Below, piece after piece: positions 5,470-64,000 of a DNA stretch of 64,000 nucleotides (positions are counted from its first letter, which is position 1; each line of letters opens with the position of its first letter). The stretch comes from Phytohabitans suffuscus (GTDB lineage: Bacteria > Actinomycetota > Actinomycetes > Mycobacteriales > Micromonosporaceae), in NCBI RefSeq assembly GCF_011764565.1, contig NZ_AP022871.1, positions 186,001 to 250,000 on the forward strand, in the 5' to 3' direction. The translations under genes were made by a program, and so were the position numbers. Below the pieces are notes generated by a model that did not search any database, was not told the DNA's origin, and worked only from the letters and a program-made list of their open reading frames with translations.

Positions 5470-5663
5470 GGATCAGGACCGAGCGGGACTCCTGCATCGC
5501 CAGCGGCGCCTGCGTGCTGGAGGCGCCGCAGGTGTTCGACCAGGACGAGGACGGCGTGGTCGTGCTGCTCGCGGAGAGCCCGGCGCCCGAGGTCGCGGAG
5601 TCCGCCCGCAACGCGATGATGGCCTGCCCGGCCGCGGTCATCACGATCGACGAGGACGCCTGA
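5466..5663 (+). CDS. [3Fe-4S] ferredoxin, P450 redox partner
   Basis: A 65-residue ferredoxin with Cys10-x5-Cys16 and Cys54-Pro. The position that would supply the fourth ligand of a [4Fe-4S] centre is not cysteine, which is the signature of actinobacterial P450 [3Fe-4S] ferredoxins. Its start overlaps the reductase stop (ATGA), so both partners are made together. A strong stem-loop follows at 5675-5708. Confidence 0.92.
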   Translation: MRIRTERDSCIASGACVLEAPQVFDQDEDGVVVLLAESPAPEVAESARNAMMACPAAVITIDEDA

Positions 5664-5674
5664 GCGGCTGTGCC

Positions 5675-5708
5675 GCGCGTGCCGCCGCCCGGGGGCGGCG
5701 GCACGCGC
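5675..5708. terminator. bidirectional rho-independent-like terminator
   Basis: A perfect 15-bp stem (arms 5675-5689 and 5694-5708, GCGCGTGCCGCCGCC and its complement) with a CGGG loop. It lies between the convergent ferredoxin and SDR genes. There is no U tract, as is common in actinomycetes. Confidence 0.8.
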
Positions 5709-5715
5709 TCCGGCG

Positions 5716-6522: not shown

Positions 6523-6552
6523 GTCAGCCCTTCTGTGTCGTCGTGCCAGGTC

Positions 6553-7815
6553 CTACGGTCGCGCCAGGATCGGTAGGCGGATCGGCGTGCGCAGCGACCG
6601 ACCGCCCCAGACGAGCTCCTCGCCGGTCAGCCTCGCCCCGGGAAAGCGCTCCGCCATCGCCGCGAAGAGCGCGACGGCCTCCATCCGGGCCAGCCCCGCG
6701 CCGAGACAGAAGTGGGGGCCCAGCCCGAGCGATACGTGGAAGCGGGAGTCGGGTCTCGTCACGTCGAGCCGGTCCGGTTCGGCGAACACCTCGGGGTCGC
6801 GGTTGGCGGCGGCCAGCACGCCGATCACGGTGTCGCCCGCCTCGATCACCACGCCGTCCAGCTCGCGCCGCTGGGCCGCGACGTACTGCAGGAAATGGGC
6901 CGGCGTGACGAACCGCAACAGCTCCTCGACGGCGGCCGGTGCCCGCGACGGGTCCGCGACGAGCAGGTCCCACTGGTCGCGGTGCTCCAGCAGGCCCATC
7001 ATCCCGATCGCCAGCAGGTTGCTGGTCGTCTCGTGCCCGGCGAAGATCATCAGCGCGAGCATCGCCCGCACCTCCTCGCCGTCCACGACACCGCCCGACT
7101 GCGCCTCCAGCAACGAGGCGACGAGTCCGGTGGTGCTTCCGCTGGCGGTCTGCCGCTCCACCAGCTCGTCGATGTACCCCATCAGGTCGCGGTAGGCGTC
7201 GTCCGCGGCCAGCGACTTCTCCTCCGAGTCGGCGTTCAGCTTGTTCTCGGCGATCCGGAACGCCCAGGAGTGGATGCGGTCGAGGTCGTGCAGGGGGATC
7301 CCGAGCAGGTCGCCCAGCACCCGCAGGGGCAGCGTGTACGCCACCTGCTTGAAGTCGACGGCGCCCCGCCGGCCGGCGATGTCGTCCATCGCCTGCCCGA
7401 CCCGGTGACGGATCTTCTCCTCCATCTCGCTCTTCAGCGCGCGTGCGGAGAACGGCGGCGTGACCACCCGCCGGACCCGTGGATGGTCCGGCGGGTCGAG
7501 CCGGACCAGCTGCTTGAACTCGTGGTCCAGTACCCGGTCGAAGGCGGCGCGCCCGGACGGCGAGAACGCCTGCCGGGCGTGCTCGTAGCGCGCCGAGTGC
7601 TTGGTGCGGGCCCGGCTGTAGAGGTGGTGGTTGTCGCCGAGCAGCGTCTTGACGTCGCTGTGCCGGCTCAGCACTACCGCGTCGCCGATCCGGGTGACCG
7701 GCAGCTCGTCCCGGAGCCGGTTCCACACCGGGTACGGGTCGGCCAGTGCCCGCGGGTCGCCGGCGAACAGTTGGCGGACCTGCTCCGCGAGATCGGAGAC
7801 GGTGGGCAGCGTCAT
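6553..7815 (-). CDS. cytochrome P450
   Basis: A 420-residue P450. The I-helix FAGHETTSN is around Glu262/Thr263, ExxR is in EELLRF, and the heme loop LGLGPHFCLG has thiolate Cys370. The loop's first aromatic residue (usually Phe) is Leu, an unusual but tolerated change. The ATG at 7815 overlaps the stop of the preceding NTF2-like gene (ATGA), so they are coupled. It is only distantly similar to the P450 at 418-1647, so the pathway likely has two separate oxidations. The ferredoxin/reductase pair at 4258-5663 is the nearest redox source. Confidence 0.9.
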   Translation of the reverse strand: MTLPTVSDLAEQVRQLFAGDPRALADPYPVWNRLRDELPVTRIGDAVVLSRHSDVKTLLGDNHHLYSRARTKHSARYEHARQAFSPSGRAAFDRVLDHEFKQLVRLDPPDHPRVRRVVTPPFSARALKSEMEEKIRHRVGQAMDDIAGRRGAVDFKQVAYTLPLRVLGDLLGIPLHDLDRIHSWAFRIAENKLNADSEEKSLAADDAYRDLMGYIDELVERQTASGSTTGLVASLLEAQSGGVVDGEEVRAMLALMIFAGHETTSNLLAIGMMGLLEHRDQWDLLVADPSRAPAAVEELLRFVTPAHFLQYVAAQRRELDGVVIEAGDTVIGVLAAANRDPEVFAEPDRLDVTRPDSRFHVSLGLGPHFCLGAGLARMEAVALFAAMAERFPGARLTGEELVWGGRSLRTPIRLPILARP

Positions 7816-8282
7816 GACTGTCGTCCTTCGCCGTCGGTGTGCCCGAGCCCGGCGCCGGCCGCGGCCGGCCCGGGTGGAAAGCGCAGATGCCCGCTCATGT
7901 CGCCGCGCAGCACCTGCTCGATCTGGCGGTCGCGGAAGCACCAGCGGCCGCCGTCCCGCTCGAAGACGTCGTGGTACCGGTTGACGCAGATCGTGGTGAC
8001 CGCGCCGTCCCGGCTGGGCTGGTGCAGCACCTGGATGTAGCTGCGCCCGGTCGCCCGCGCGGGCGGGTCGAGGGTGACCGACACATTGTTCACCACGTGA
8101 ACGGTCCGCGGTGAGCCGTCGTAGAGCCGCACGTGGGCGCGCAGCCATCCGAGGGTCTCGCCGTAGCCCCGCAGACCCTGCCATCGCCCATGGCGGAACA
8201 GCTCGGCGAACCCCTCGAAGTCAGCCGTGTCCAGCCGATGGGCGTACTCGTGCATCAGCTCGATGATCGGCTCAACGCTCAC
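7812..8282 (-). CDS. SnoaL/NTF2-like fold protein
   Basis: A 156-residue protein with the NTF2-like sequence pattern: an N-terminal helix IIELMHEYAHRLDTADFEGFAELF, then strands ending RTVHVVNNVSVTL, VNRYHDVFERDGGRWCFRDR. Members act as ketosteroid isomerase-like isomerases, dehydratases, polyketide cyclases, or subunits of ring-hydroxylating dioxygenases. The reaction here cannot be fixed. The GTG start at 8282 follows TAGGAGCG. It is the first gene of the operon running to the SDR, behind the shared upstream element at 8298-8318. Confidence 0.75.
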   Translation of the reverse strand: MSVEPIIELMHEYAHRLDTADFEGFAELFRHGRWQGLRGYGETLGWLRAHVRLYDGSPRTVHVVNNVSVTLDPPARATGRSYIQVLHQPSRDGAVTTICVNRYHDVFERDGGRWCFRDRQIEQVLRGDMSGHLRFPPGPAAAGAGLGHTDGEGRQS

Positions 8283-8297
8283 GCCCGCTCCTAGTCC

Positions 8298-8318
8298 TTA
8301 ACCAGACTAAACATTATG
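8298..8318 (-). promoter_or_regulatory. shared upstream element, copy 2 (NTF2-P450-SDR operon)
   Basis: The plus strand reads TTAACC-AG-ACTAA-A-CATTA. Sixteen bases in three blocks with the same spacing match the element at 1673-1693. It lies 16 bp upstream of the GTG start at 8282, in the same orientation to its gene as the other copy. It may be an operator of one of the TetR proteins or a promoter core. Confidence 0.45.
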
Positions 8319-8348
8319 GAGCCGTGCGGTGCAAGGGTTTCGGCGCTC

Positions 8349-9548
8349 TCAGTCGGCGAGCTTCGCGGCCATGGCGTCGATGAGGTACCGCAGCGCCTTG
8401 TGCGGGCGGACCAGCACGGTGATCTCCTCGATCCGCCCGTCCGGATCCCACCGCAGGATGTCCACGCCCTGGATCTCGACGCCATCCAGCACCGCCGCGA
8501 ACTCCAGCACCGCCGAGTCGGCGGCCAGCCACGTGCGCCGGTAGCCGATCGCGTCGCCGAGGACGGCGAGCGCGGCGCCGAGGTAGCGGGTGGTCGCCTC
8601 CCGGCCCCGCTGCGGCGCGTGCACGGCGGGCGACCGGAACTCCACGGACTCCGCCAGGATCGACGTGACCGGGCTCAGGTCGCGGTCGCGCATCATCTGA
8701 TGCCAGCGGCGCACCGGTTCAGGCGCCCCGGTCCGGCCGGGATCAGCCGCCTCCGGTGCGCGCGGTCGCCGGTGGCTGGCGAAGTCGGGAGCCCGCTTGG
8801 CCGCGAACGCCGTGATGCCCTCGACGCCGGACGGGCTGCCCGCCGCCTCCACGATGGCCTCCGCCTCCCGGTCCAGCTGCGTCTCCAGGCCGCGCTCGAA
8901 CGCGCCGCGCAGCAACCGGACCGAGTTGGCCAGGGCGGTGTCCGGTCCCGCCGCCAGCCGGTGCGCCAGCTCGGCGGTGGCCTGGCGCAGCTCGCCGGGC
9001 TCCACCACGTGGCTCAGCAACCCCCAGGCGAGCGCCTCGTCCGCCGGCAGCGTCCGGTTGGTCAGCACGAGCTCGGCCGCGCGGTGGGGTCCGACAAGCC
9101 TCGGCAGGATCCACGAGAGGCCGCTGTCCGGCGAGAGCCCGGCCCCGGTGTACGCCGTCACGAAGCGGGCCGTCCGCTCGGCCAGCACGACGTCGCACGC
9201 CAGGGCGAAACCCAGGCCCGCCCCGGCGCACGCGCCCTGTACCGCCGCGATGACCGGGACCGGCAGCGCGCGCAGCGCGAGCACGGCCCGGTGGGCGGCG
9301 TCCGCCAGCTGGCCCAGGTACTCGCGCGGCTGCGGAGCCGCCGCCATCGCGCGCAGGTCACCGCCGACGCAGAACCGCGCCCCGGCGCCGGTCAGCACGA
9401 CGACCGCCACGCCGGGCAGGGTGGCGACCTGCGTGACGACCTCGTGCAGCGACCGGGCGAGCCCGAGGTCGACCGCGTTCCCCCGCTCGGGCCGGGACAG
9501 CTCGACGGTCGCCACACCGCCGCTCACGTCGAGCCGGACGGCGTTCAC
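8349..9548 (-). CDS. enoyl-CoA hydratase/isomerase fused to a C-terminal NTF2-like domain
   Basis: A 399-residue protein. Residues 1-265 are a crotonase: the GGDLRAM oxyanion segment, GACAGAGLGFALACD, and SPDSGLSWILPRLVG. The last is the PaaG-like form of the active-site loop. One crotonase glutamate is retained in AAELVL, while the residue equivalent to the first glutamate appears to be Tyr, so isomerase or another activity is possible. From about residue 275 a SnoaL/NTF2-like domain follows (RWHQMMRDRDLSPVTSILAE, then VEIQGVDILRWDPDGRIEEI). The usual crotonase ends near 260, so this is a real fusion without an intervening stop. GTG at 9548 overlaps the acyl-CoA dehydrogenase stop. Confidence 0.85.
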   Translation of the reverse strand: MNAVRLDVSGGVATVELSRPERGNAVDLGLARSLHEVVTQVATLPGVAVVVLTGAGARFCVGGDLRAMAAAPQPREYLGQLADAAHRAVLALRALPVPVIAAVQGACAGAGLGFALACDVVLAERTARFVTAYTGAGLSPDSGLSWILPRLVGPHRAAELVLTNRTLPADEALAWGLLSHVVEPGELRQATAELAHRLAAGPDTALANSVRLLRGAFERGLETQLDREAEAIVEAAGSPSGVEGITAFAAKRAPDFASHRRPRAPEAADPGRTGAPEPVRRWHQMMRDRDLSPVTSILAESVEFRSPAVHAPQRGREATTRYLGAALAVLGDAIGYRRTWLAADSAVLEFAAVLDGVEIQGVDILRWDPDGRIEEITVLVRPHKALRYLIDAMAAKLAD

Positions 9549-10701
9549 AGCCCCAGGTCCCGGCCGATGATCTCTTTCATGATCTCCGTGGTGCCACCGT
9601 AGATGGTCTGGATGCGGGCGTCGGCGAACCCGCGGCAGACCGCGTACTCCCGCATGTAGCCGTAGCCGCCGTGCAGTTGCAGGCACCGGTCGGCCACCCG
9701 GACCTGCAGCTCCGAGCACCAGTACTTCGCCTTGGCGGCCCGCACCGGCGTCAGCTCCTTGCGGCTGTGCAGCGCGACGCAGTGGTCGACGAATACCCGG
9801 GCGATGTCGACCTCGGCGTGCAGCTCGGCGAGGAGGAACTTGTTGTGCTGGAAGCTGCCGATCGGTCGCCCGAACGCCTGCCGCTGCGTGACGTACTCCA
9901 TCGTGCGGGCCAGCATCCCTTCGGCGGCGGACACCGCGCTGACCGCCAGCGACAGCCGCTCCTGGGCAGGTTGCGCATCAGGTGGAAGAAGCCCTCGCCC
10001 TCCTCGCCGAGGCGGTTCTCCACCGGCACGCGTACATCCGTGAAGTGCAGCTCGCTGGTGTCCTGGCCGTGCATGCCGAGCTTGTCGAGGTTGCGTCCGC
10101 GCTCGAAACCCGCCATGCCGCGTTCCACCACGAGCAGGGTCAGCCCCCGGTGCCTGTCGGCGGACGTGCGGGCCACGACCACGACGACGTCGGCGTTCTG
10201 CCCGTTGGAGATGAACGTCTTCGACCCGTCCAGGACGTAGTGACCGCCGTCCCGCACGGCCTTGGTCGCGATGCCGGACAGGTCGCTGCCGGCATCCGGC
10301 TCCGTCATCGCGATCGCCCCGACCAGAGAACCGTCGGTGAGGCCGGGCAGCCAGCGCCGCTTCTGTCCGTCGTCGGTCAGGTCGAGCAGGTACGGGCCGA
10401 CCACGTCGTTCTGCAACGCGATCGACAGGCCGGCCGACGCGTAGCCGGACCGGCCGAACTCCTCCCCGACGACCGCGCTGAACCGCCAGTCGTCGACCCC
10501 GGCCCCGCCGTACGCCTCCGGGGTCGCGTGCAGGAGCAGCCCGGCGTCACCGGCCCGGAGGAACAGGCTCCGGTCGACGATCCCGCGCCGCTCCCACTCC
10601 TCGTCGTGGGGTGCGACCTCGGCCTGGATGAACGACCGTACCGTCGACCGGAACTGCTCGTGCTCCTCCTCGTAGAGGGTCCGCGGGACCGTGTCAGTCA
10701 C
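9545..10701 (-). CDS. acyl-CoA dehydrogenase (one-base frameshift)
   Basis: Two adjacent frames together give a 385-residue acyl-CoA dehydrogenase. The N-terminal part runs from GTG at 10701 through AIAMTEPDAGSDLSGI and LDGSKTFISNGQNADV to HLMRNLP. The C-terminal part carries TRQRQAFG-type FAD contacts (MEYVTQRQAFGRPIGSFQ), CLQLHGGYGYMREY and IQTIYGGTTEIMKEIIGRDL. The join needs one extra base at the GGG run 9964-9966, after which the length is divisible by three. The enzyme introduces the alpha-beta double bond of an acyl-CoA, passing electrons to ETF. It sits between an SDR (8-bp overlap) and the crotonase fusion (4-bp overlap), as in a beta-oxidation operon. Confidence 0.88.
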
Positions 10702-11542
10702 CTTCGCCTCCAGGCAGGAACAGGTCGATCCGCAACCGGGACTCGGGCGCGTCGCCGTACCGGTAGGGCGACAGGTCCGTCACGCCGGCGGACGCGAGGA
10801 CCTCGTCGTCGACGTAGCACCGGCCGGTGGCCTCCTGGGCCGGCCGCGACACGATCGCGTGCGCGGCGTCGGCCATGATCTCCGGCCTGCGCGAGACGGC
10901 CATCGCGGCCTCGCCACCGACGATGTTCTGGACCGCGGCGGTCGCGATGGTCGTCCGCGGCCACAGGCAGTTCGCGGCCAGCGGCACGGGGTGGCGCTGG
11001 GCCGCGACCCCGAGCGTGAGCAGGGTCATCGCGTACTTGCTCACCGTGTACGGCGCGTGCGCGCCCAGCCAGTACGGGTCGAGGTTGATCGGTGGTGAGA
11101 GGGTCAGCACGTGCGGGTTGCCCGACCGGTGCAGGTGCGGCAGGGCGGCGCTGGTCATGAGGAAGGTGCCCCGGGCGTTGATGTCCAGCATCAGGTCGTA
11201 GCGCTTGGCCGGCAGCTGCCCGATCGGCGCCAGGGCGATCGCCGAGGCGTTGTTGACGAGGATGTCGATCCCGCCGAACGCCGCAACGGTCTGCTCGACG
11301 GCGCGCTCCACGTCCTCGGCCCGCCGCACGTCCCCGACGATGCCCAGACCCCGCCCGCCCGCGGCCTCGATCTCCCGGACCGCGGTGTGCACGGTGCCCG
11401 GCAGCCGGGGGTCCGGCTGGTCGGTCTTGGCCAGCAGGGCCACGTTGGCGCCGTCCCGCGCCGCGCGGCACGCGATCGCCAGGCCGATCCCCCGGCTTCC
11501 GCCCGACATCAGGACCGTCCGGCCGGCCAGCGGCGCGGTCAT
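10694..11542 (-). CDS. short-chain dehydrogenase, HSDL2-like
   Basis: A 282-residue SDR. The cofactor motif SGGSRGIG is at about residues 14-21, NNAS in ILVNNASAIAL, and YTVSK as the Tyr/Lys motif. The segment LTLSPPINLDPYWLG is characteristic of the hydroxysteroid dehydrogenase-like 2 subgroup, as is a C-terminus that lacks the usual VDGG ending. It probably acts on a hydroxyacyl or hydroxylated lipid intermediate. The ATG at 11542 overlaps the FadB stop and its end overlaps the acyl-CoA dehydrogenase, so it is embedded in the beta-oxidation operon. Confidence 0.85.
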   Translation of the reverse strand: MTAPLAGRTVLMSGGSRGIGLAIACRAARDGANVALLAKTDQPDPRLPGTVHTAVREIEAAGGRGLGIVGDVRRAEDVERAVEQTVAAFGGIDILVNNASAIALAPIGQLPAKRYDLMLDINARGTFLMTSAALPHLHRSGNPHVLTLSPPINLDPYWLGAHAPYTVSKYAMTLLTLGVAAQRHPVPLAANCLWPRTTIATAAVQNIVGGEAAMAVSRRPEIMADAAHAIVSRPAQEATGRCYVDDEVLASAGVTDLSPYRYGDAPESRLRIDLFLPGGEGD

Positions 11543-13698
11543 CGGAACAGCTCCCCCGCCTGCGCGCGGGCGACGAGCGAGGGTGGCGGGGTGAACCGCT
11601 CGCCGTACCTGCCCGCCAGCTCGCGGGCCCGGGCGACGAACCCGGCCGGCCCGCCCTCGTACTGGTTCACGTACTGCAGGACGCCACCGGTCCACACCGG
11701 AAAGCCGATGCCCAGGATCGACCCGACGTTGGCGTCCGCGACCGACCGGAGCACGCCGGAGTCGAGGCAGCGGACGGCGTCCAGCGCCTCGGCGAACAGC
11801 ATCCGCTCGCGCATGTCGACAAGCGGTATGCCGGTGTTCCGCCCGCCGAAGGCGTCCCGCAGGCCGGGCCACAGACCCGCCTTGCGCCCGTCCTGGTACT
11901 CGTAGAAGCCGGCCCCGCTGGAGCGCCCCCGCCGGCCGAACTCGTCCACCATCCGGTCGAGCACCGCCCACCCCGGGTGGACCGGGGTTTCGACACCCGA
12001 CGCCCGGTAGCCGGCCCGGGTCTGCTCCCGGATCGTCCTGGCCAGGGTGAGGGTCAGCTCGTCCACGAGCGCCAGCGCGCCCACCGGGTAGCCGGCCTGC
12101 GTGGCGGCCTGCTCCACCGAGGCGGCGGGCACGCCGTCGCCGACGAGGGCGATCGCCTCGTTGACGAACTCGAGGATGACCCGGCTGGTGAAGAAGCCGC
12201 GGCTGTCGTTGACGACGATCGGCGTCTTGCCGATCTGCCGGGCGATGTCGACCGCCTTGGCCAGCGTCTGGTCGCTGGTCTTCTCCCCGACCACGATTTC
12301 GAGCAGCTGCATCCGGTCGACCGGCGAGAAGAAGTGCAGCCCGATGAAGCCGCCGGGGTCGCGCACCGAGCCGGCCAGGTCGGTGATCGGCAGGGTCGAG
12401 GTGTTCGACGCCACGACCGCGTCGCCCGCGAGGTGGGGCAGCACCTCGGCGATGACCCGCTTCTTGAGCGCGGGATCCTCGAACACCGCCTCGATGACGA
12501 GGTCGGCGCCCCGCGCGTCCGCGATGTCGGCGGTCGGCGTGATCCGGGCCAGGACGGCCGTACGCTGCTCGGGCGTCGTCCGCCCCGCCGCGACGGCCTT
12601 GTCCAGCAGGCGCTCGCTGTAGCTCTTGCCTCGTGCCGCCGCCTCGACGCTCACGTCCTTGAGGACGACGTCCAGACCGGCCTTGGCGCTGACGTAGGCG
12701 ATGCCGGCGCCCATCATCCCGGCGCCGAGCACGACGACCTTGCCGGCGGTGTGCGGCGGGTACCCGGCGGGCCGGCTCGCCCCCCGCTTGATCGCCTGCA
12801 GGTCGAAGAACATCGCCTGGATGATGTTCGCGGAGACCTGGCCGCAGATGAGGTCGGCGCAGTACCGCGACTCGATGACCTGGGCGTTGTCGAAGTCGAC
12901 CTGAGCGCCCTCGACAGCGGCGGACAGCAGGCTCTGCGCCGCCTCGTTGGGCGCGCCCTGCGCCTTCTTGCGCAGCAGCGCCGGCAGGGTCGGCAGCGTC
13001 GCCCACAGCGCCGGCGAGGACGGCGTCCCGCCCGGGAGCCGGTAGCCGGGGCGGTCCCACGGCTGCCGCGCGTCCGGGTTGGCGGCGATCCAGCGCCGGG
13101 CGGCGGCGAGCATCGCCTCCCGGCCGGTGGCCAGCTCGTCCACCAGCCCCTGCTCCAGTGCCTCGGCCGCGCCGAACTGCCGTCCACTGAGGAGGATCCT
13201 CTCCAGCGCGACCTGTAGCCCGAACATCCGGACCGCCCGCGTGGTGCCTCCGCCGCCGGGCAGGAGGCCGAGGGTCACCTCGGGCAGCCCCACCTTGACC
13301 GCCCGGGAGTCGAGGGCGACCCGGTGGTGGCAGGCGAGCGCGATCTCGTAGCCGCCGCCCAGCGCGGCGCCGTTGATGGCCGCCACCACGGGCCGGCCGA
13401 GCAGCTCCAGGCGGCGCAGCGCGGCCTTGACGCCGTCGAGCATCGCGCGCACGGCGGGCCGGTCGTCCTCGGTGGTCCGCATCATGAGGCCGAGGTCGCC
13501 GCCGGCGAAGAACGTCTCCTTCGCCGACGTCACGATGACCCCGGCGATGCCGTCGCGCGCGGCTTCGAGGCGGTCGAGCAGTCGCGGGAGCTGCTCGACG
13601 AAGCGATCCGTCATGGTGTTGGCCGACTGTGCCGGGTCGTCCATCGTGACGGTCACGATGCCGCCGGCGTCCTGGCTCCAGCTGAAGATGTCTGTCAT
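11539..13698 (-). CDS. fadB: FadB-type 3-hydroxyacyl-CoA dehydrogenase / enoyl-CoA hydratase
   Basis: A 719-residue bifunctional enzyme. The N-terminal crotonase part (about residues 1-290) has FFAGGDLGLM, GAALGGGYEIALACHH and KVGLPEVTLGLLPGGGGTTR with both catalytic glutamate positions plausible. From about residue 315 the NAD-binding KVVVLGAGMMGAGIAYVSAKAG starts the hydroxyacyl-CoA dehydrogenase. Its active-site His lies in GLHFFSPVDRMQLLEIV, and dehydrogenase C-terminal domains follow. It hydrates enoyl-CoA and oxidises the L-3-hydroxy product. It pairs with the thiolase 39 bp upstream. The start ATG at 13698 follows GGAAG. Confidence 0.95.
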   Translation of the reverse strand: MTDIFSWSQDAGGIVTVTMDDPAQSANTMTDRFVEQLPRLLDRLEAARDGIAGVIVTSAKETFFAGGDLGLMMRTTEDDRPAVRAMLDGVKAALRRLELLGRPVVAAINGAALGGGYEIALACHHRVALDSRAVKVGLPEVTLGLLPGGGGTTRAVRMFGLQVALERILLSGRQFGAAEALEQGLVDELATGREAMLAAARRWIAANPDARQPWDRPGYRLPGGTPSSPALWATLPTLPALLRKKAQGAPNEAAQSLLSAAVEGAQVDFDNAQVIESRYCADLICGQVSANIIQAMFFDLQAIKRGASRPAGYPPHTAGKVVVLGAGMMGAGIAYVSAKAGLDVVLKDVSVEAAARGKSYSERLLDKAVAAGRTTPEQRTAVLARITPTADIADARGADLVIEAVFEDPALKKRVIAEVLPHLAGDAVVASNTSTLPITDLAGSVRDPGGFIGLHFFSPVDRMQLLEIVVGEKTSDQTLAKAVDIARQIGKTPIVVNDSRGFFTSRVILEFVNEAIALVGDGVPAASVEQAATQAGYPVGALALVDELTLTLARTIREQTRAGYRASGVETPVHPGWAVLDRMVDEFGRRGRSSGAGFYEYQDGRKAGLWPGLRDAFGGRNTGIPLVDMRERMLFAEALDAVRCLDSGVLRSVADANVGSILGIGFPVWTGGVLQYVNQYEGGPAGFVARARELAGRYGERFTPPPSLVARAQAGELFR

Positions 13699-55722: not shown

Positions 55723-56687
55723 CGGGCGGCGCGCGCCGGGCGTCCAGGCCGGTGAGCGGGAGGCAGGAGGACCGCGCGACGGAGCGCACCGACCAGGTCG
55801 GGGCGGTGGAGACGACCAGCAGCGCGACCGGCACCCGGCGCGGGGTGTCCCGGCCGCGGCTGCTGGCCGGGCTCGCGTTCCTGGTGCTGGGGATCTCCGC
55901 GGCCAGCACCACCTCCGCCGGCGCGGCGGGCGCGACCCTGGTCTACGCCTTCCTGAACTTCTTCGCCGGCGTGGTGACCCTGGTGGCACTCTCGCTGACG
56001 GTCATGGGCGGCCTCGTGGCCACCGACCGCTTCTACCTGACCATCGGTCACCGGGTCTTCTTCCAGGGCGTGCACCGCGCGACGGCGATCATCGCGATCG
56101 TCTTCCTCGGGCTGCACGTCTCGCTGAAGATCCTGTCCGGCAGCGCCACCCTGATCGACCCGATCGTGCCGTTCGCCAACCTGGCCAACCCCGTCTACAT
56201 CGGACTGGGCACGATCGCCGGCTACCTGATGGTCGCGGTGTTCTGGACCGGGATCATCCGGGCCCGGTTCGCCAGCGGCGGCAAGCCGTGGATGTGGCGG
56301 ACCCTGCACGCCGCCTCGTACCTGGCCTGGCCGATCGCGATCACGCACGGCCTGACCGCCGGCCGGCCGGCCAAGACCTGGGTGACCCTGAGCTACCTGG
56401 GCTGCGTCGTGTTCGTCCTCATCGGCCTGCTGGTGCGCCTCTACGTGGTCCTCGGGCGCCGCGCCAACGGCCCGAAGGCCGGACCGGCGGCGGTCGGCGT
56501 CAACGTGCAGACCGTGCTCATGCCCCGGGTCGGCGACGGTCCGTACCGCCGGGAGCAGGCGCCGGCCCGGCACCGGCTGGAGACCGGCGGCGACCGCCGC
56601 ACCGGGTACGAGCCCGAACCGGGCCACGGTCGCCCCGGTCCCTACCCGCCGGCGGCAGATCCGGCGCCGTCACGCCGGGCGTGGTGA
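55719..56687 (+). CDS. heme-binding-type membrane protein (ferric reductase / cytochrome b561-like)
   Basis: 322 residues with about six membrane spans between residues 50 and 250 and a long basic tail. Paired histidines in spans fit b-heme ligation: IGHRVFFQGVHRATAIIAIV, LGLHVSLKIL, WRTLHAASYLAWPIAITHGL. This pattern is shared with the ferric-reductase-like transmembrane domain (YedZ/MsrQ group). It may carry electrons for the partner DUF4142 protein encoded just upstream (inference). Its end overlaps the convergent SARP gene by 46 bp. Confidence 0.75.
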   Translation: MTGGARRASRPVSGRQEDRATERTDQVGAVETTSSATGTRRGVSRPRLLAGLAFLVLGISAASTTSAGAAGATLVYAFLNFFAGVVTLVALSLTVMGGLVATDRFYLTIGHRVFFQGVHRATAIIAIVFLGLHVSLKILSGSATLIDPIVPFANLANPVYIGLGTIAGYLMVAVFWTGIIRARFASGGKPWMWRTLHAASYLAWPIAITHGLTAGRPAKTWVTLSYLGCVVFVLIGLLVRLYVVLGRRANGPKAGPAAVGVNVQTVLMPRVGDGPYRREQAPARHRLETGGDRRTGYEPEPGHGRPGPYPPAADPAPSRRAW

Positions 56688-59524
56688 CCGGAGGCGGTGT
56701 TGAGCAACGCGACTTCGCGTTTTATCGATATCTCGATGATCGAGGCGTACGGCTGCCGGGCCATCTCCAGCGCCTGGTGCAGCAGGCGCCGGGCCTCGCC
56801 GTAGTGCCCCTGGCGCTGGCGCAGCAGGCCCAGGCCGCGGACCGCCTGCGCCTGGCCGGGCAGGTCGCCGAGGGCGGTGGTCATCGCGCGGACCTCGGCG
56901 AAGGCCGCCTCGGCCTCCGGGTAGCGCTCCTGGTCGATGCGGAGCATTCCCTGCCAGAAAAGCACCTGGGCGAGGCTCCTCCTGGCTTCCGGGACCCGGT
57001 GGCAGAAGGCCAGCGCCTGGTCGAAGAGGGCGTCGGCCTCCGCCAGGTCGCCTTCCTGCAGGGCGAGCTGGGCCATGTTGCGCAGGGTGTACGCGGCGCC
57101 GCCGAAGTCGCCGCCCTCGACGAGGTCCGGAAGCGCGCTCGCGAACCGCCGGGCGGCGTCGCCGAGCCGCCCCAGCATCCGGGCGGTGCTGCCGGCCAGG
57201 GCGGTCGCGGTGGCCCGCCCGTACCGGTCGCCGGCGCGCTCGAACAGGGCCGCCGAGTGGAGCAGGTGCTTCAGGCTGCTGTCGTACTCGTGCCGGTACC
57301 CGTCCAGCTCGGCGGTCCGGCACAGGACCGCGGCCTGGCCCCGGATGTCACCGGCCCGCCGGGTCCGTTCGAGGGCCTTGGCGAGCAGGTGCTCCCAGCC
57401 GTCGGCGTGGTGGCGCATCGGGTACAGCGGCGAGAACGCACAGGCCAGGTCCCAGCAGTCGGCGGAGGTCCCCTCCGCGGCGGCGAGCTGCACCATCTGC
57501 TCGACGTTGACCCGTTCCTGCTCGAACCAGCCCAGCGGATCGGTCCGGGCCGCCGTCCGGACCTCGTCGGCGACCGGCCACCGGTCGGCTTCGCTGCTGA
57601 CCCGCAGCAGGTCGGAGCCGTGCACCGCCCGGAACGCGACCTCGGCGAGGCTCAGGTACGCCCCGCGCGCCCGGGCTCTGGCCTCCCAGCGGGCGCGCGT
57701 GGTCTCGGCCGCCTGGCAGTGCTCGCGGGCGACGAGCCGGACCAGGTTGTGCATCTTGAAGCGGGGTCCGGTGATGCCGTTGCTGGCGTGGTCGAAGAGC
57801 TGCGCGTCGATCAGCTCCTCGAACGCCTCCTCGGCCGTGTCGAGGCCGGTGTCGAGCAGGGCCGCGCCGAGCCAGACCGGGATGTCCGGCACCTCCAGGT
57901 CGCCGAAGTGGTTGATCAGGCGTTGCGCGTCGCGGCTGAGCCCGCGGTAGCTCAGGCCGATGCTCCCGCGCACGTCGAGGTCGCCGTACGAGAAGCGGTC
58001 GAGCCTGGTCTGCTCGTCGTCCAGGCGCTCGACGAGCTTGGCGACCGTCCAATGTGGTTTGGCCACGAGCAGCGCGGCCGCGATCCGGATGGCGAGCGGC
58101 AGCCCGCCGCAGCGGCGCACGAGCTTGACCGCCGAGTCCGCCTCGGCGCTGACCCTCCCGTCGCCGGCGGTGGCGCGCAGCAACTGCTTCGCCTCGGCGG
58201 CCTCCATGACGTTGAGGCGGATGGTGCGCGCGGCCATGACGGCGGCGATCGGATTGCGCCCGTTCACGATCACCGCGCAGTCCGGGCCCGCCGGGATCAA
58301 CGGCATGACCTGCTCGCCGACGGACGCGTTGTCGAGCACCACGATCACCCGCCGCCGCGACAGCAGCGACCGGTAGAGGTCGACGCGCTCGTCCAATGTG
58401 GCCGGTACGGCCGAGCCGGTCACGCCGAGCAGGCGCAGGAAGCGTCCCAGCACCTCCGTCGGGTCCACCGGCCGCTCGGTGTCGAACCCGTGCAGGTTGG
58501 CGAAGAGCTGCCCGTCGGGGAACCGCTGGCTCAGCGCGTGTGCCGCGCGGACGGACAGCGCCGTCTTGCCGACGCCCGCCGGACCGATGACCACGACCAC
58601 CGGAGGCGCGTTGCCGTGCCCACCGAGCAGCCCGTCGGCCAGGGCCGCCATCGCCGTCTCGCGCCCGGTGAAGTACGCGATGTCGGGTGGCAGGTTTTGC
58701 GGGGTGTACTCCGGGGACGGCGGCGCGGCGGGCGCGGCCGGCGGCGTACCCGGCTGGGCGTTCTCCGGCGGGCTGGCGGTGTCCCGGTCGTCCCGCAGGA
58801 TCGCCAGGTGCAGCTCCCGCAGCGCGGAGGTCGGGCTCGTGCCCAGGTCGTCGTCGAGGATGCGCCGGCACTGCTCGTACAGCCGCAGTGCCTCGGACGA
58901 GCGCCCCACCGCGCGCAGTGCGGTCATCGCCTGCTCGACCAGCCGCTCGCGGGTGGGGTGGTGGCCGGCGAGGTCGAGGATCTCGTCGGCGATCCGCTGG
59001 TGCAGCCCCAGCCGCAGCTCGGCCTCGAAGAGCGCCTCGTACGCGGCGAGCCGTTCGGCCTCCAGCCGGTGGATGAGCGAGGTCGCGGCCGGCGTCTCCA
59101 GCTCGTTACCCAGGACCGGGCCCCGCCAGAGCGAAAGCGCGTGCCGCAACGACTCGCGTACGGCCTCGTCGGGCCGCCCCGCGCCGCCGGAGACGATCTG
59201 GCGGAACAGCTCGGCGTCCACCTGGGAGGCCGGCGCGGTCAGCCGGTAGCCGTCGCCGCGACCGGCGAGGACGACGTCGGCGCTGGAGCCGTCCCGCGCG
59301 CCGAGCTTGCTCCTGAGCTCGGAGATCCTGCTCTGCAGGACGGCGCGGGCCCGCTCCGGGGCCTGCTCGCCCCACAGGTGCTCGACGAGCGCGTCGGTGG
59401 AGACCACCCGGTCGAGCTCCAGGGCGAGGATGCCCACGATGAGGCGCTGCTGCTTGCGCACGAGCGGGACCTGGTGGTCGTCTCTCCACACTTCCACCGG
59501 TCCGAGCACACGGATCTCCACCAT
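56642..59524 (-). CDS. AfsR/SARP-family regulator (BTAD, NB-ARC, TPR) of the RiPP locus
   Basis: 960 residues from ATG at 59524 (MVEIRVLGPVEVWRDDHQVP). A winged helix and BTAD domain run to about residue 250, then a Pro/Ala linker. The NB-ARC P-loop is GPAGVGKT (Lys320), RRVIVVLDNA serves as Walker B, and GGLPLAIRIAAALL follows. The TPR-like C-terminus contains LGRLGDAARRFASALPDL and RYPEAEAAFAEVRAM. It sits 129 bp downstream of the MFS exporter of the RiPP locus and is the likely pathway activator. A GCGAACCC string repeated three times near 61351-61440 is a possible target (inference). Confidence 0.92.
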   Translation of the reverse strand: MVEIRVLGPVEVWRDDHQVPLVRKQQRLIVGILALELDRVVSTDALVEHLWGEQAPERARAVLQSRISELRSKLGARDGSSADVVLAGRGDGYRLTAPASQVDAELFRQIVSGGAGRPDEAVRESLRHALSLWRGPVLGNELETPAATSLIHRLEAERLAAYEALFEAELRLGLHQRIADEILDLAGHHPTRERLVEQAMTALRAVGRSSEALRLYEQCRRILDDDLGTSPTSALRELHLAILRDDRDTASPPENAQPGTPPAAPAAPPSPEYTPQNLPPDIAYFTGRETAMAALADGLLGGHGNAPPVVVVIGPAGVGKTALSVRAAHALSQRFPDGQLFANLHGFDTERPVDPTEVLGRFLRLLGVTGSAVPATLDERVDLYRSLLSRRRVIVVLDNASVGEQVMPLIPAGPDCAVIVNGRNPIAAVMAARTIRLNVMEAAEAKQLLRATAGDGRVSAEADSAVKLVRRCGGLPLAIRIAAALLVAKPHWTVAKLVERLDDEQTRLDRFSYGDLDVRGSIGLSYRGLSRDAQRLINHFGDLEVPDIPVWLGAALLDTGLDTAEEAFEELIDAQLFDHASNGITGPRFKMHNLVRLVAREHCQAAETTRARWEARARARGAYLSLAEVAFRAVHGSDLLRVSSEADRWPVADEVRTAARTDPLGWFEQERVNVEQMVQLAAAEGTSADCWDLACAFSPLYPMRHHADGWEHLLAKALERTRRAGDIRGQAAVLCRTAELDGYRHEYDSSLKHLLHSAALFERAGDRYGRATATALAGSTARMLGRLGDAARRFASALPDLVEGGDFGGAAYTLRNMAQLALQEGDLAEADALFDQALAFCHRVPEARRSLAQVLFWQGMLRIDQERYPEAEAAFAEVRAMTTALGDLPGQAQAVRGLGLLRQRQGHYGEARRLLHQALEMARQPYASIIEISIKREVALLNTASGHHARRDGAGSAAGG

Positions 59525-59653
59525 TGTCCCCCGTAGGACGGCGTCCGACCCCGGGCGGAACCGACGCAGGCAGGAGCTGATCATATACAACCACGGAAGC
59601 GGCCGCCGGCCCTCGTGCGAGGGGCGGCGGCCGCCAGCCGGGGGGGCGCTCGT

Positions 59654-60981
59654 TCAGGCATCGACGGGCTTCGGCTCCGCGTCCGTCCGCTCGGCGGCGG
59701 CCGGGGCGTCGCTGCCGCGAAGGGCGATCCACGCGTACGTCCCGCACGCCGCGATCAGGACGCCCGCGGCGACGAAGATGGTGTCGTACGTCCCGAACCG
59801 CACCCCGGCGACCTCGACGTCGAGGTCACGCAGCAGGGAGCTGGACAGCCAGCCGGCGACGCCGATGGCGATCACCGACATGAGCTGTACCGCGGGCTGG
59901 ACCAGGCCGAAGACCCGTCCGAGCAGGTCCCGGGGACGGAGCGCATGACGATCGGCGCCACGACGGTGTTCATCGCGGCGAGCGGCACGGCGAGGACGAG
60001 GAGCAGCAGCAGGCCGGCGGCGAAGGTGGTGCTCCGCGCGTACACCGCCATGACCACGCCGGTCGCGATGAGGCCGACCCAGTACGTCCGGGCCAGGCCC
60101 ACGCGCTGCGCGGCCACCCCGGACAGCGCCGCGCCGGCGACCGCGCCCACGCCGAACGCGGTGCCGAGGAAGCCGTACATCTGGGCCGAGGCGCCGAGGT
60201 TGTCGGTCACGAAGAAGACGTTGAGGGTGTTGAGCAGGTAGGCGCCGAAGTTCGCGACCATGGCACTGACCAGGAGCGCGACGAGGATGCGGCTGCCGCC
60301 CACCACGGCGAGCCCGGCGCGCAGCTCCGACCACAGGCCCGGCCGCTGCGGGACCTGCCGGCCGGCTTCGGGCCCGGGGGTCCGGACCCCGTACAGGAAC
60401 AGGAAGGAGACGAAGAAGCTCGCCGCGTTGATGAGCAGGGCCCAGCCGACGCCCACCCCGAACAGCAGCGGGGCGGCCAGCGGCGGCCCGACGATGCCGG
60501 CGATCGCCATCGACGCCTGGCCGATCCCGGACGCCTTCGCCCGCTGGTCGGGCTCGACCACGTCGGCCACGACCGCGAAGCGCGCGGGGGTGAAGAACCG
60601 GGAGATGGCGGTACTGACGAACACGGTGGCGTACACGACGGCCAGCGTGGCCCCGACCGGTACGGTCCCCTCCGGCAGAAGGGGAAGCAGCGCCAGGGCG
60701 CCGATGAGCCCCATCCGCAGCAGGTCGCTGCCGAGCATCGTGCGCCGGTTGTCCCACCGGTCCACGTACACGCCCGCGATCGGGCTGATCAGCACGGTCG
60801 GGACGACGACGGCCGCCAGCACGCCGCCGACCGCGGCCGGGGCCCACGGCTGGTCCGCGGCGAGGATCGTCGAGATCCAGAGGATGACCGTCACGTCGAA
60901 GACGTAGTCGCCGACCCAGGAGATGACGCCGGCCGCCCAGAGCCTCGCGTACGAGCGGTTGATCAGAAGTCTCGTCAGCAT
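59654..60981 (-). CDS. MFS exporter (one-base frameshift)
   Basis: About 442 residues and 12 membrane spans when corrected. It starts MLTRLLINRSYARLWAAGVI, has the MFS inter-span motif VYVDRWDNRRTMLGSDLLR (DRxxRR), and the central region YGVRTPGPEAGRQ. The last two spans lie in another frame (RDLLGRVFGLVQPAVQLMSV onward) and join after one base at the GGGG run 59932-59935. This is the MFS_3/enterobactin-exporter-like group often found in natural-product loci. It lies directly after the precursor peptide gene on the same strand and is the probable exporter of the product. Confidence 0.87.
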
Positions 60982-61054
60982 TGTCTCGTCGGCCTCCGGT
61001 CTGCCGCGTAACGGTCTCGCGTGTTGGGTCTGGTGTGGTCGCGGTGACCACGCC

Positions 61055-61097
61055 GGGCGCCGGCGATCTTCTATGGGGGTCGAAGAGGCCGGCGCCC
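61055..61097 (-). terminator. stem-loop between precursor and exporter genes
   Basis: 10-bp inverted repeat GGGCGCCGGC (61055-61064) and GCCGGCGCCC (61088-61097) with a 23-base loop, placed 45 bp after the precursor stop. A partial terminator here would let the precursor be made in excess over the exporter, as is usual in RiPP operons. Confidence 0.5.
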
Positions 61098-61141
61098 GAC
61101 CGCTCAGCTCGCCCAACCGCCTGGCGCGGAGGGCGGGTCGG

Positions 61142-61321
61142 TCACCCGCAGCAGCCGACGTTGACGTGAATCGCGCGCTCCAGCGGGTCCTCCTCCTCGA
61201 ACTCGTGACCCTCGACGTCGCCGTCCTCCGACACGGTGGCGTTGTAGCCCTTGGGCAGGCGCACCTTCGCCTTGACTTCGACACTGTCCGAGCTCAGGTC
61301 GATGTTGACGTCCTCAGCCAT
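61142..61321 (-). CDS. RiPP precursor-like peptide, 59 residues, C-terminal GCCG
   Basis: A short gene starting at ATG 61321 with GGAGGG nine bases upstream. The leader-like part MAEDVNIDLSSDSVEVKAKV is acidic, followed by RLPKGYNATVSEDGDVEGHE and an acidic stretch FEEEDPLE. The last nine residues are IHVNVGCCG, holding the only two cysteines of the peptide directly before the final Gly. Short length, charged leader, Cys-rich end, an exporter downstream and a divergent B12-radical SAM maturase of the RiPP type together support a ribosomal peptide precursor. The peptide family is not one I recognise. Modification of the Cys-Cys-Gly end or of residues near it is inferred. Confidence 0.7.
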   Translation of the reverse strand: MAEDVNIDLSSDSVEVKAKVRLPKGYNATVSEDGDVEGHEFEEEDPLERAIHVNVGCCG

Positions 61322-61597
61322 GCTCTTTCGCCCTCCTTCCCTTCTTCGTCGCGAACCCTTCCGCGTCGCGAACCCTGTCCACCGCCGGGGCGGCTGGCGC
61401 CCCGGCGCGTCCAGTAGATCCAGCCGCCGTCCGCGAACCCATCCGTCCGGGGGTGGATCGCCGCGGGTTCACCCTCCACCGGCGGAGACGGGTACCGGCG
61501 GATGGTTGGCCAGGGGCGTCCCCCGGGAGGTGGAGGCGGTATTCGCGGCCGCGGGCGACAGTCCAACGGCAGCCACCCGCGCTGCGGATCGGAGTCG
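61322..61597. promoter_or_regulatory. divergent promoter region of the RiPP locus
   Basis: 276 bp between the leftward precursor and the rightward radical SAM gene. The string GTCGCGAACCCT occurs at 61348-61359 and 61365-61376, and GCGAACCC again at 61433-61440. Direct repeats of this kind are what SARP activators bind, although the spacing is not the canonical 11 bp. A perfect 9-bp hairpin (GCCGGGGCG, loop GCTGG) is at 61384-61406. Confidence 0.45.
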
Positions 61598-63498
61598 GTG
61601 ACGGTGACCCTTCAGATCGAGGTGAGGCGCGCCGACGACGTCCCGGTCGAGCGACCGCCGGGCACGCTCAAGGTGCTGCTCGTCTGCATGCCGTGGCTCG
61701 GCCTGCACCTGCCGTCGCTGGCGTTGAGCACCCTGGCTCCGCTGACCCGCGGGCTGGACTTCGTCGACGGCCTGGACGTGCGGTACGTCAACATCGAGTG
61801 GGCGCAGTACCTGCGCGACCGGACGGACGGCCGGATCGGCGGCGACGACTACTCGGCCATCTCCGAGAGCGACTTCTCCGCCGTCGGCGAGTGGGTCTTC
61901 TCGGGCTCGCTGTACGACCGGCCGGACCCGGAGCGGACCGCGTACCACCGCCGGCTCACGGCGGGCGGGCACGACATGACCCTGGCCGAGGAGCTGTACC
62001 GGCTGGCCGGCCCGTTCGTCGAGGCGGTCGCCGACGACATCTGCGCCGGCGGCTACGACGTGGTCGGCTTCACCACCACCTTCGTCCAGAACGTCCCCTC
62101 TTTCGCGCTGGCCCGGGCGATCAAGCGCAGGAGGCCGGAGGCGGTCGTCGTCTTCGGCGGCGCGAACTGCGACGACGTGCAGGGCGCGGCGATGCACCGC
62201 AACTTCGCCTTCGTCGACTACGTGGTCCGGGGTGAGGCCGAGCGGACCTTCCCGCTGCTGCTTCGCCGCCTCGCCGGCGCCACCGGCGTCCGCGACCGCG
62301 ACATCGCCGGGCTCTGCTGGCGGGACGGGGACGGCCAGCCGCGGGCGAACCCGATGGACGCCGGCGGGGTGGGTGTCGACGCGATCCCGGAGGCCGCCCA
62401 CGACGACTACTTCTCGGCGCTGGAGCGCAACCCGGTCGGCGCCGAGGTGCACCCGAAGATCATTCTGGAAGGGGCGCGCGGCTGCTGGTGGGGCAGAAGC
62501 ACCACTGCACGTTCTGCGGGCTCAACAACACGTTGATGGCGTTCCGGGCCAAGGACGCGACGAGGATCCTGGACGAGCTGAAGCGGGCCGTCCGCAAGCA
62601 CCGCGTCCTGGACGTGATGTTCGCCGACAACATCCTCGACCAGCGCTACCTGACCGAGCTGGTGCCGGAGCTGACCGCGCTGGGCTGGGACCTCGACATC
62701 TTCTTCGAGGTCAAGTCGAACCTGCCGTACCCGAAGCTCGCCGCCCTCGCCCAGGCCGGCGTCACGCGCGTCCAGCCCGGGATCGAGAGCCTCAGCACGC
62801 GCGTGCTGGAGCTGATGCGCAAGGGAGTGCGGGGCTGGCAGAACGTCCGCTTCCTGCGCGACTGCGTGACGGTCGGGATCCATCCACAGTGGAACATCCT
62901 GTACGGCTTTCCGGGCGAGACCCCTGACGACTACGCACCGGTCTTCGAGCAGCTGCCGAGCCTGGCGCACCTGCCGCCGCCGCAGGGGGCCTCGCGGGTG
63001 GCGCTGACGAGGTTCAGCCCGTTCTTCGACGATCCGGGGCTCGGCATGGTCAACGAGGGGCCCGCGCCGGCGTTCACGCTGATCTACGATCTGCCGCCCG
63101 CCGAGGTGGCCGACCTCGTGTACCTGTTCCAGAGCAGGGACAGCGGGCTGGTCGGCGAGCCGGTCGAGCGCCTGTCCAGCCTCGTCGCCGACTGGTCGAG
63201 GGCGTCCGGGCGGACGCTGGCCGCGCTCGACCGGAGCGGCGGCGGCCTGGTCCTCGTGGACCGGCGGCGCTCGGCCCGTGCGGTGGAGCACCGGCTCGAC
63301 GCGCGGGAGGCGGCGGTGTACCGGCACCTGCTCAAGGGCCACAGCCTCGCCGCCCTCACCAGGATCGCCCAGGAGGCCGGCTCGCCGTTCGACGCGGCCG
63401 GGGTGGCGGAGTTGGTGGCTCGGTGGCGCGCGCGAGGTCTGGTCTTCCAGGACGGGGACGTCCATGTCGCCCTGGCCACCGGGTTGGGGTACCGGTGA
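61598..63498 (+). CDS. B12-binding radical SAM RiPP maturase, C-methyltransferase type (one-base frameshift)
   Basis: About 633 residues when corrected. The N-terminal cobalamin-binding-like domain has LKVLLVCMPWLGLHLPSLAL, YDVVGFTTTFVQNVPSFALA and VVFGGANCDDVQG. The radical SAM core has GARGCWWGQKHHCTFCGLNN, giving a CX7CX2C cluster motif (Cys296, Cys304, Cys307). That motif, with WWG and FCGLN, is the hallmark of RiPP maturation radical SAM protein 1 (TIGR03975-type). It continues IFFEVKSNLPYPKLAALAQA and VTRVQPGIESLS. The frame breaks inside this motif at GGGG 62490-62493; adding one base restores it. GTG at 61598 follows CGGAGTCG. It likely methylates an unactivated carbon of the precursor. 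Confidence 0.88.
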
Positions 63499-64000
63499 GC
63501 GCGACCCCCGGCCCGGGCACCACTTCGGACGATCCGATGTGGACCCACTGGCCGTCGCACCTGAGGCGCTCCGTGGCCGACCTCGAAGCCGTCGCCCGGC
63601 AACGGCTGCGCGGTGTCGTCGTCGGCGAGCCGGTGCACCTGGCGCCGGAGGCGGACACCGGCGCGGCGGTGTTCCTGGCGCTGCTGCGGGAGTCGGCCGG
63701 TCTCGGGCTGGTGGTCCGGTGGCGGGGGTCGGTCAGCGGTATCCCGCACGCGCTGGTGCGCCACCTCAGCGCGCCGTACGACGGCCCGGCCGGCCACTTC
63801 GCGTGGCGCCGCCCCCGCACGGCCGGACTGCGGCTGCGCCGGGGGCCGGGTTTCCTGACGATCGAGGACCGGCGGTTCGGCCCGGTCCGGCGCACCCTCG
63901 TGCCGGAGCACGACGAGCGGTTCGCCGCGCTGTGCCCGCCGGCCACCGCCGGGCTGCTGCCGGAGGTCGACCCCGCCGCCGGCGCGCGCCTGTGCTCGGA
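63495..64000 (+). CDS. partner protein of the radical SAM enzyme, unknown function, partial
   Basis: GTG at 63495 overlaps the radical SAM stop (GTGA), so it is translationally coupled. The open frame continues off the right edge. Visible parts are MWTHWPSHLRRSVADLEAVA, VVVGEPVHLAPEADTGAAVF, GLVVRWRGSVSG, HALVRHLSAPYDGP, then GPGFLTIEDRRF. No catalytic motif is recognised. The position suggests an accessory protein such as the DUF5825-type proteins I associate with this maturase family, but that match is from memory and weak. Confidence 0.6.
   Translation, partial: MSATPGPGTTSDDPMWTHWPSHLRRSVADLEAVARQRLRGVVVGEPVHLAPEADTGAAVFLALLRESAGLGLVVRWRGSVSGIPHALVRHLSAPYDGPAGHFAWRRPRTAGLRLRRGPGFLTIEDRRFGPVRRTLVPEHDERFAALCPPATAGLLPEVDPAAGARLCS

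What the first reader, a model, noticed from the sequence alone, without database searches (positions are those of the whole stretch)
56642..64000. Candidate undescribed RiPP locus with a GCCG-ending precursor
SARP regulator, MFS exporter, a 59-residue acidic peptide ending VGCCG, a divergent B12-binding radical SAM enzyme of the RiPP C-methyltransferase type, and a coupled partner protein form a compact biosynthetic locus. Known: TIGR03975-like maturases act on ribosomal peptides. Seen: the peptide has only two cysteines, both directly before the terminal glycine. Inferred: the core is the short C-terminal end, and the product is C-methylated and exported by the MFS protein.
Basis: partly seen in the sequence, partly recalled or inferred. 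Interest (0 to 1): 0.85.

Follow-up and report, generated by a model that had tools for sequence, protein, structure and literature searches.

The report
Hybrid thiazole and radical-SAM peptide cluster
An actinomycete chromosome holds a gene for a 59-residue peptide with two adjacent cysteines at its end, next to genes whose enzymes are predicted to turn those cysteines into thiazole rings and would likely also methylate and trim the peptide, a mix that points to a likely new type of small modified peptide.

Summary
The 59-aa frame (61142-61321, minus) has a strong ribosome-binding site and coding-type codon use, and its one known homologue, in Phytohabitans kaempferiae, is 84% identical. That homologue ends GCCS: the CC pair is conserved, the last Gly is not. 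The neighbour is a TIGR03975 B12 radical SAM enzyme followed by an overlapping DUF5825 gene, a pair reported to C-methylate amino acids in clavusporins. As assembled, its frame is broken inside the CxxxCxxC motif; P. kaempferiae has an unbroken copy.

The CC pair is therefore most likely an azole-forming site, probably a C-terminal bithiazole in a C-methylated hybrid RiPP. A CC end is no hallmark of the maturase family: none of 15 other loci has a credible CC-ended peptide. The E1-YcaO type looks rare. The chemistry is inferred from families; nothing was assayed.

The parts
56642..59524 (-). SARP-type regulator (BTAD, NB-ARC, TPR); likely cluster regulator
   Evidence: Pfam/NCBIfam; start codon and membership in the cluster inferred
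59654..60981 (-). MFS exporter candidate; frame broken near 59930
   Evidence: PF07690/PF05977; codon HMM
61142..61321 (-). 59-aa precursor peptide candidate ending HVNVGCCG
61622..63498 (+). TIGR03975 B12-binding radical SAM enzyme; frame broken near 62490 inside CxxxCxxC
   Evidence: unbroken 628-aa homologue P0014; start codon inferred from P0014
63495..64000 (+). DUF5825 partner, GTGA overlap with the maturase; cut by the window end (its stop lies 58 bases beyond). The further genes of the cluster lie past the window and are listed in the full report

Best explanation
The 59-residue peptide is likely the precursor of a hybrid RiPP: an E1-YcaO cyclodehydratase encoded just past the window end is predicted to convert its C-terminal Cys57-Cys58 pair into thiazol(in)es, and the B12 radical SAM enzyme with its DUF5825 partner would C-methylate nearby core residues. 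Inferred order: the N-terminal part of the E1-YcaO protein (predicted strand-strand-strand-helix pattern, RRE-like) binds the leader; the YcaO domain cyclises Gly56-Cys57-Cys58 to tandem thiazolines; the SagB-like protein oxidises them to a bithiazole; TIGR03975/DUF5825 methylates a carbon in the conserved segment (I/V)HVNVG; the SPASM-type enzyme adds a further C-H-based crosslink, for which the conserved His-Val-Asn is a candidate site; the M16 pair removes the leader; the MFS protein exports. Shown: gene content, families, conservation of the peptide and of two unbroken enzymes in a second species. Inferred: every chemical step.
For: Peptide conserved with HVNVGCC unchanged. P. kaempferiae has the peptide (P0002), a 691-aa E1-YcaO (P0005, 79%) and a 628-aa maturase (P0014, 84%), all listed with the same longest contig, 429,026 bases. 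The E1-YcaO profile matches LynD (1.7e-20), TruD and MusD in the PDB, and P0005 passes the TOMM leader-binding cut-off (45.4 over 36.9). Foldseek also ranks LynD first. The only Cys in the peptide are 57 and 58, and there is no Ser/Thr after residue 31. P0014 passes TIGR03975 (572.8 over 281.85). [quoted passage not shown] A maturase relative lies beside DUF5825 in 29 of 29 fetched non-own loci, of 48 matched places in 33 genomes. A metagenomic YcaO relative (P0008) and maturase relative (P0016) share contig length 17,556. A second Micromonosporaceae cluster (L041) also joins TIGR03975 + DUF5825 to E1, YcaO and SagB genes, these three all over their curated cut-offs.
Against: Four genes are frame-broken in this assembly (MFS, maturase, E1-YcaO, SagB-like region), so this copy may be inactive. 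TIGR03604 (85.4 bits here, 93.0 in P0005; cut-off 219.25) and the SagB match (24.3; cut-off 78.4) are below their curated cut-offs. The SPASM-type enzyme passes none of the cut-offs among the 25 best families listed (best 177.2 against 525). The three P. kaempferiae genes are linked only by equal contig length and species name. The AlphaFold model of P0005 is weak (mean pLDDT 59.2, 5 sequences), and its match to LynD has TM-scores of only 0.29-0.35. No product mass is known.
Confidence: 0.6

Rival explanations
1. The cysteines are thioether donors: the SPASM-type radical SAM enzyme links them to other residues (ranthipeptide/sactipeptide-like), and the YcaO does something else, such as a single azoline or a cleavage.
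For: The SPASM-type enzyme's only PDB sequence match is 5wgg (2.2e-9; recalled as the thioether-forming CteB). Its NCBIfam matches include maturases of Cys-containing peptides (TIGR04463, CefB, PapB families). A YcaO entry titled as having peptidase activity (7u58, MusD) is also among the matches.
Against: Two adjacent Cys at the extreme C-terminus give an unusual thioether layout. An E1-YcaO of the LynD/TruD kind would have no other Cys substrate in this peptide.
Confidence: 0.2
2. One reading: the core is only C-methylated by the TIGR03975/DUF5825 pair and exported; the azole genes past the window belong to another pathway.
For: The peptide lies divergently next to the maturase, and such pairs work in other clusters.
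Against: The E1-YcaO gene is convergent with DUF5825, 6 bp away, and the peptide, maturase and E1-YcaO of P. kaempferiae are listed with one contig length. No other ORF of 20-110 aa with coding bias, a ribosome-binding site and a place outside larger genes was listed in 59400-73300.
Confidence: 0.1
3. In this strain the cluster is decaying: the frame breaks are real, and nothing is made.
For: The heuristic flags 5 frame changes in 14.6 kb of cluster coding sequence against 26 in 209.4 kb sampled elsewhere in the same genome (P 0.04-0.05). One of the five is an ordinary gene junction; without it P is 0.11-0.13. A break near the E1-YcaO start was missed. One break lies inside the CxxxCxxC motif.
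Against: Nine random stretches of the genome show 20 flagged changes in 144.7 kb against 11 in 164.8 kb of three control genomes (p = 0.07), as indel errors in the assembly would give. The codon HMM sees coding sequence on both sides of the MFS, maturase, E1-YcaO and SagB-region breaks. P. kaempferiae has unbroken maturase and E1-YcaO proteins.
Confidence: 0.25

Closest known systems
Clavusporin-type C-methylation (TIGR03975-like B12-rSAM + DUF5825)
   Same: Same enzyme pair; reported C-methylation of amino acids (PMC12257519, passages read; the primary clavusporin paper was not seen)
   Different: The present precursor ends in CC(G/S), and E1-YcaO, SPASM-type radical SAM and M16 genes lie beside it; clavusporin leader removal is described as involving a POP protease, MpcP (PMC12951456, one passage)
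Cyanobactin heterocyclases LynD/TruD and the related MusD (TOMM/LAP azole peptides)
   Same: Single-chain E1-like + YcaO protein; best sequence and fold matches
   Different: 16-19% identity in the fold alignments; one CC pair at the very C-terminus; radical SAM enzymes in the same cluster
Nostatin A (azole-containing proteusin)
   Same: Combines azoles with a class B cobalamin-dependent C-methyltransferase assigned by its authors (PMC11583998, passages read)
   Different: Proteusin: nitrile hydratase-like leader, PoyD-like epimerase; here a 59-aa precursor with DUF5825, SPASM-type rSAM and M16 genes
L041 cluster (unnamed Micromonosporaceae genome G012)
   Same: TIGR03975 + DUF5825 + E1 + YcaO + SagB
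   Different: Separate E1 and YcaO genes, no match to the window's SPASM-type or M16 proteins, 46-aa candidate precursor without Cys

Membership tests
TIGR03975 RiPP C-methyltransferase | Score over the curated cut-off | tested here: met
   C-terminal piece alone 331.7 over 281.85, N-terminal piece 221.9; unbroken homologue P0014 572.8
TIGR03975 RiPP C-methyltransferase | B12-binding domain and continuous CxxxCxxC radical SAM motif | tested here: inconclusive
   B12-binding 37.4 bits and Radical_SAM 57.3 bits over cut-offs, but the motif is split by a frame break in this assembly; it is continuous in P0014
TIGR03975 + DUF5825 pair (clavusporin-like) | Adjacent DUF5825 gene | tested here: met
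   29 of 29 fetched non-own DUF5825 loci also have a maturase relative
TIGR03975 + DUF5825 pair (clavusporin-like) | C-methylated product | not testable with these tools
   needs mass spectrometry
TOMM / linear azol(in)e peptides | E1-like leader-binding domain plus YcaO | tested here: met
   PF02624 81.8 over 25.7; TIGR03882 45.4 over 36.9 in homologue P0005, but 22.5 and 21.4 (below) in the two broken frames here; LynD/TruD/MusD
TOMM / linear azol(in)e peptides | SagD-family score over cut-off (TIGR03604) | tested here: not met
   85.4 and 93.0 against 219.25: not of the SagD subfamily as curated
TOMM / linear azol(in)e peptides | SagB-type dehydrogenase (optional in TOMMs) | tested here: inconclusive
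   24.3 against 78.4, region frame-broken
TOMM / linear azol(in)e peptides | Azole in the product | not testable with these tools
   needs mass spectrometry
SPASM thioether maturases (SCIFF, PapB, TIGR04463) | Score over a family cut-off | tested here: not met
   best 177.2 against 525; the 25 best of 53 families were listed
A putative maturase family with CC-ended peptides | CC-ended peptide beside the maturase in related loci | tested here: not met
   0 of 15 loci with a credible one; 6 of 15 contain only chance-type ORFs of 25-120 aa ending CC or CCx

The most novel reading that the evidence does not exclude
A new class of hybrid RiPP: a short precursor whose conserved tail (I/V)HVNVGCC(G/S) is turned into a C-terminal bithiazole next to C-methylated residues and a radical-SAM-made His-Val-Asn crosslink, combining LynD-like, B12-rSAM/DUF5825 and SPASM-type chemistry on fewer than ten residues.
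Probability: 0.3. Interest if true: 0.78.

Novelty: new variant of a known kind. Interest (0 to 1): 0.56.

Why it matters
A cluster that puts an azole-forming YcaO enzyme, a B12 radical SAM C-methyltransferase with DUF5825 and a SPASM-type radical SAM enzyme on one short precursor would let the order and compatibility of these chemistries be tested on a very small core. My ten paper searches listed no paper that I recognised as describing this combination; only open-licence PMC papers were searched, listings were capped, and two papers holding the word TIGR03975 (PMC9426513, PMC12350317) were seen in the listing only. It also shows that a window edge can hide the enzymes that decide what a precursor's residues are for.

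Tried and rejected
Programmed frameshift in the maturase: set aside, because the related protein P0014 is continuous at that place and other genes in the cluster show breaks too. CC end as a hallmark of TIGR03975: rejected. DUF5825 fold: the AlphaFold model from two sequences had mean pLDDT 41.6 and was not used. An alignment of DUF5825 with fused maturase-DUF5825 proteins was unusable. M16 peptidases as a tracer of the cluster: rejected, 70 of 197 genomes have relatives at 1e-30. E1-YcaO in other genomes: the own genome and one weak partial match among 250 of the family at 1e-20, the own only among 394 of the class at 1e-40; in both only 3-4 first-look candidates a genome were scored. A scan of named genomes with the maturase's C-terminal half gave only three loci, L002-L004. 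SPASM enzyme distribution: not obtained. Exact clavusporin cluster comparison: the primary paper was not found in the library (one search lists three papers that mention it once each).

Full report
Observation. The window is G000:C1:186001-250000 of a 10.15-Mb single-contig genome. The peptide ORF 61142-61321 (-) encodes MAEDVNIDLSSDSVEVKAKVRLPKGYNATVSEDGDVEGHEFEEEDPLERAIHVNVGCCG. It has a Shine-Dalgarno stretch. Among ORFs of 20-110 aa in 59400-73300 that passed my ribosome-site and codon filters it is the only one outside larger genes, and a codon HMM trained on the region recognises it as coding. The protein search found two entries: itself and P0002 of Phytohabitans kaempferiae, 49 of 59 residues identical, ending HVNVGCCS. 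A search of 6 genomes of the genus (own included) found only the own copy. The Cys pair is thus conserved in the one known homologue, and the last Gly is not.

The maturase. The divergent gene matches TIGR03975 in two frames (221.9 and 331.7 bits) that meet between GARGCWWG and QKHHCTFC. In P. kaempferiae the same protein is continuous (P0014, 628 aa, 84%) and passes the family cut-off. DUF5825 follows with a GTGA overlap. The PF19142 search found it in 33 of 250 family genomes (48 matched places, some of them pieces of one gene). Thirty loci were handed out; all 29 that are not the own one also carry a maturase relative, so the pair looks like a fixed module. PMC12257519 (passages only) states that such a pair C-methylates amino acids in clavusporin biosynthesis. 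Some relatives fuse the two (P0048 and others; 120 of 556 hits listed).

Beyond the window (window numbering continued; window position = L005 position + 53999). DUF5825 ends at 64058. Then, all on the minus strand: E1-like/YcaO protein about 64065-66070 (PF02624 81.8 bits; TIGR03882 pieces; frame breaks near 65420 and 66026); radical SAM protein about 66180-67413 with TIGR04463, PapB and SCIFF-type relatives below their cut-offs; LuxR regulator about 67410-68186; a region 68188-70121 with a weak SagB match and at least one frame break; M16-like proteins 70130-71587 and 71530-72789, the latter with HLFEH. P. kaempferiae has the E1-YcaO protein unbroken (P0005, 691 aa, 79%), listed with the same longest contig (429,026) as its peptide and maturase. 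The five-member alignment A1 matches LynD, TruD and MusD in the PDB by sequence. A weak AlphaFold model (pLDDT 59.2) ranks LynD first in Foldseek with TM-scores of 0.29-0.35. Its N-terminus is predicted as three strands followed by helices, compatible with an RRE.

Why the Cys pair is probably an azole site. Cys57 and Cys58 are the only cysteines, and there is no Ser or Thr between residue 31 and the end, so a LynD-like enzyme has one obvious target; that TruD and LynD act on Cys is recalled, not tested. The rival is thioether formation by the SPASM-type enzyme, whose only PDB sequence match is 5wgg. The two can be separated by mass (see next steps). The His-Val-Asn crosslink is speculation from recalled radical SAM cyclophane motifs of the form aromatic-X-Asn.

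Neighbourhood test. In 15 loci with maturase relatives (L002-L004, L041-L052) no credible CC-ended peptide was found; six (L004, L042, L046, L047, L048, L049) contain ORFs ending CC or CCx that I judge to be chance, since none is among the coding-biased candidates near the maturase. Several loci have other candidate precursors: L041 46 aa without Cys, L046 63 aa with YK repeats, L050 and L052 27 aa with HG(S/T)CKY. One of the 15 (L041) has E1, YcaO and SagB genes beside TIGR03975/DUF5825. None of the 15 has a match to the window's SPASM-type enzyme at 1e-3; two (L002, L042) have M16 matches. The E1-YcaO type looks rare: 2 of 250 family genomes including the own one, 1 of 394 class genomes, the own, and nine proteins at 1e-10 in the large protein set, own included, with 7988 candidates scored.

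Frame breaks. Counting same-strand frame changes whose old frame stays open more than 40 nt past the change: 5 in 14.6 kb of cluster coding sequence, 4 in 46.9 kb of the rest of the window, 2 in 17.8 kb to the right, 20 in 144.7 kb of nine random stretches of the same genome, 11 in 164.8 kb of three control genomes. The cluster excess is borderline (P 0.04-0.05) and so is the genome's excess over controls (p = 0.07). A closer look shows that one of the five, at the start of the LuxR gene, is an ordinary gene junction (with four, P is 0.11-0.13), and that one break near the start of the E1-YcaO gene was missed. The count is a heuristic. Assembly error and decay both remain open.

Novelty. Azoles with a B12 C-methyltransferase occur in nostatin A (PMC11583998, passages), and the maturase/DUF5825 pair is known. 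The 2015 TOMM survey PMC4603692 contains none of the terms radical SAM, rSAM, C-methyl or hybrid (find only). The full combination was not recognised in the listings of ten searches of open-licence papers. I file it as a new variant of a known kind: a hybrid of azole RiPP and C-methylated RiPP, with an unusual CC-ended short precursor.

Noticed in passing
L041 (G012:C1:2389000-2408999), 5459-12533: A second hybrid cluster: TIGR03975 + DUF5825 + E1 (TIGR03882) + YcaO (TIGR03604 over cut-off) + SagB (over cut-off), with a 46-aa Cys-free candidate precursor directly upstream of the maturase.
   Followed up: partly
L050 12269-12352 (-) and L052 12262-12345 (-): Two similar 27-aa peptides (IKKV..KK.THG(S/T)CKY) directly upstream of the maturase relative in two genomes; candidate short precursors.
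   Followed up: no
L046 7582-7773 (+): 63-aa peptide with repeated SYK/GYK motifs just upstream of a maturase/DUF5825 pair in a genome of the same genus; no NCBIfam match.
   Followed up: partly
L053 6044-6388 (-), about 16 kb right of the window end: An aroma-sacti-domain protein (NF045560, 77 bits over 30) contains QDVEGHE; the window peptide has GDVEGHE and the cluster's LuxR protein DDVEGHR. Whether the shared DVEGH means anything is unknown.
   Followed up: partly
L042 10311-13010: The M16 match of this relative is split around an ORF at 11243-11872 that looks, by eye only, like an IS3-type transposase.
   Followed up: no
L005 19014-20000 (+), right of the cluster: FAD-dependent oxygenase of the BagK/FevA1 type (198.5 bits, below its cut-off of 800; the stretch cuts the gene), start of the right-hand flank.
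   Followed up: no
whole genome G000: Flagged frame changes are about twice as frequent as in three control genomes (20 in 144.7 kb against 11 in 164.8 kb, p = 0.07), which hints at indel errors in the assembly.
   Followed up: partly
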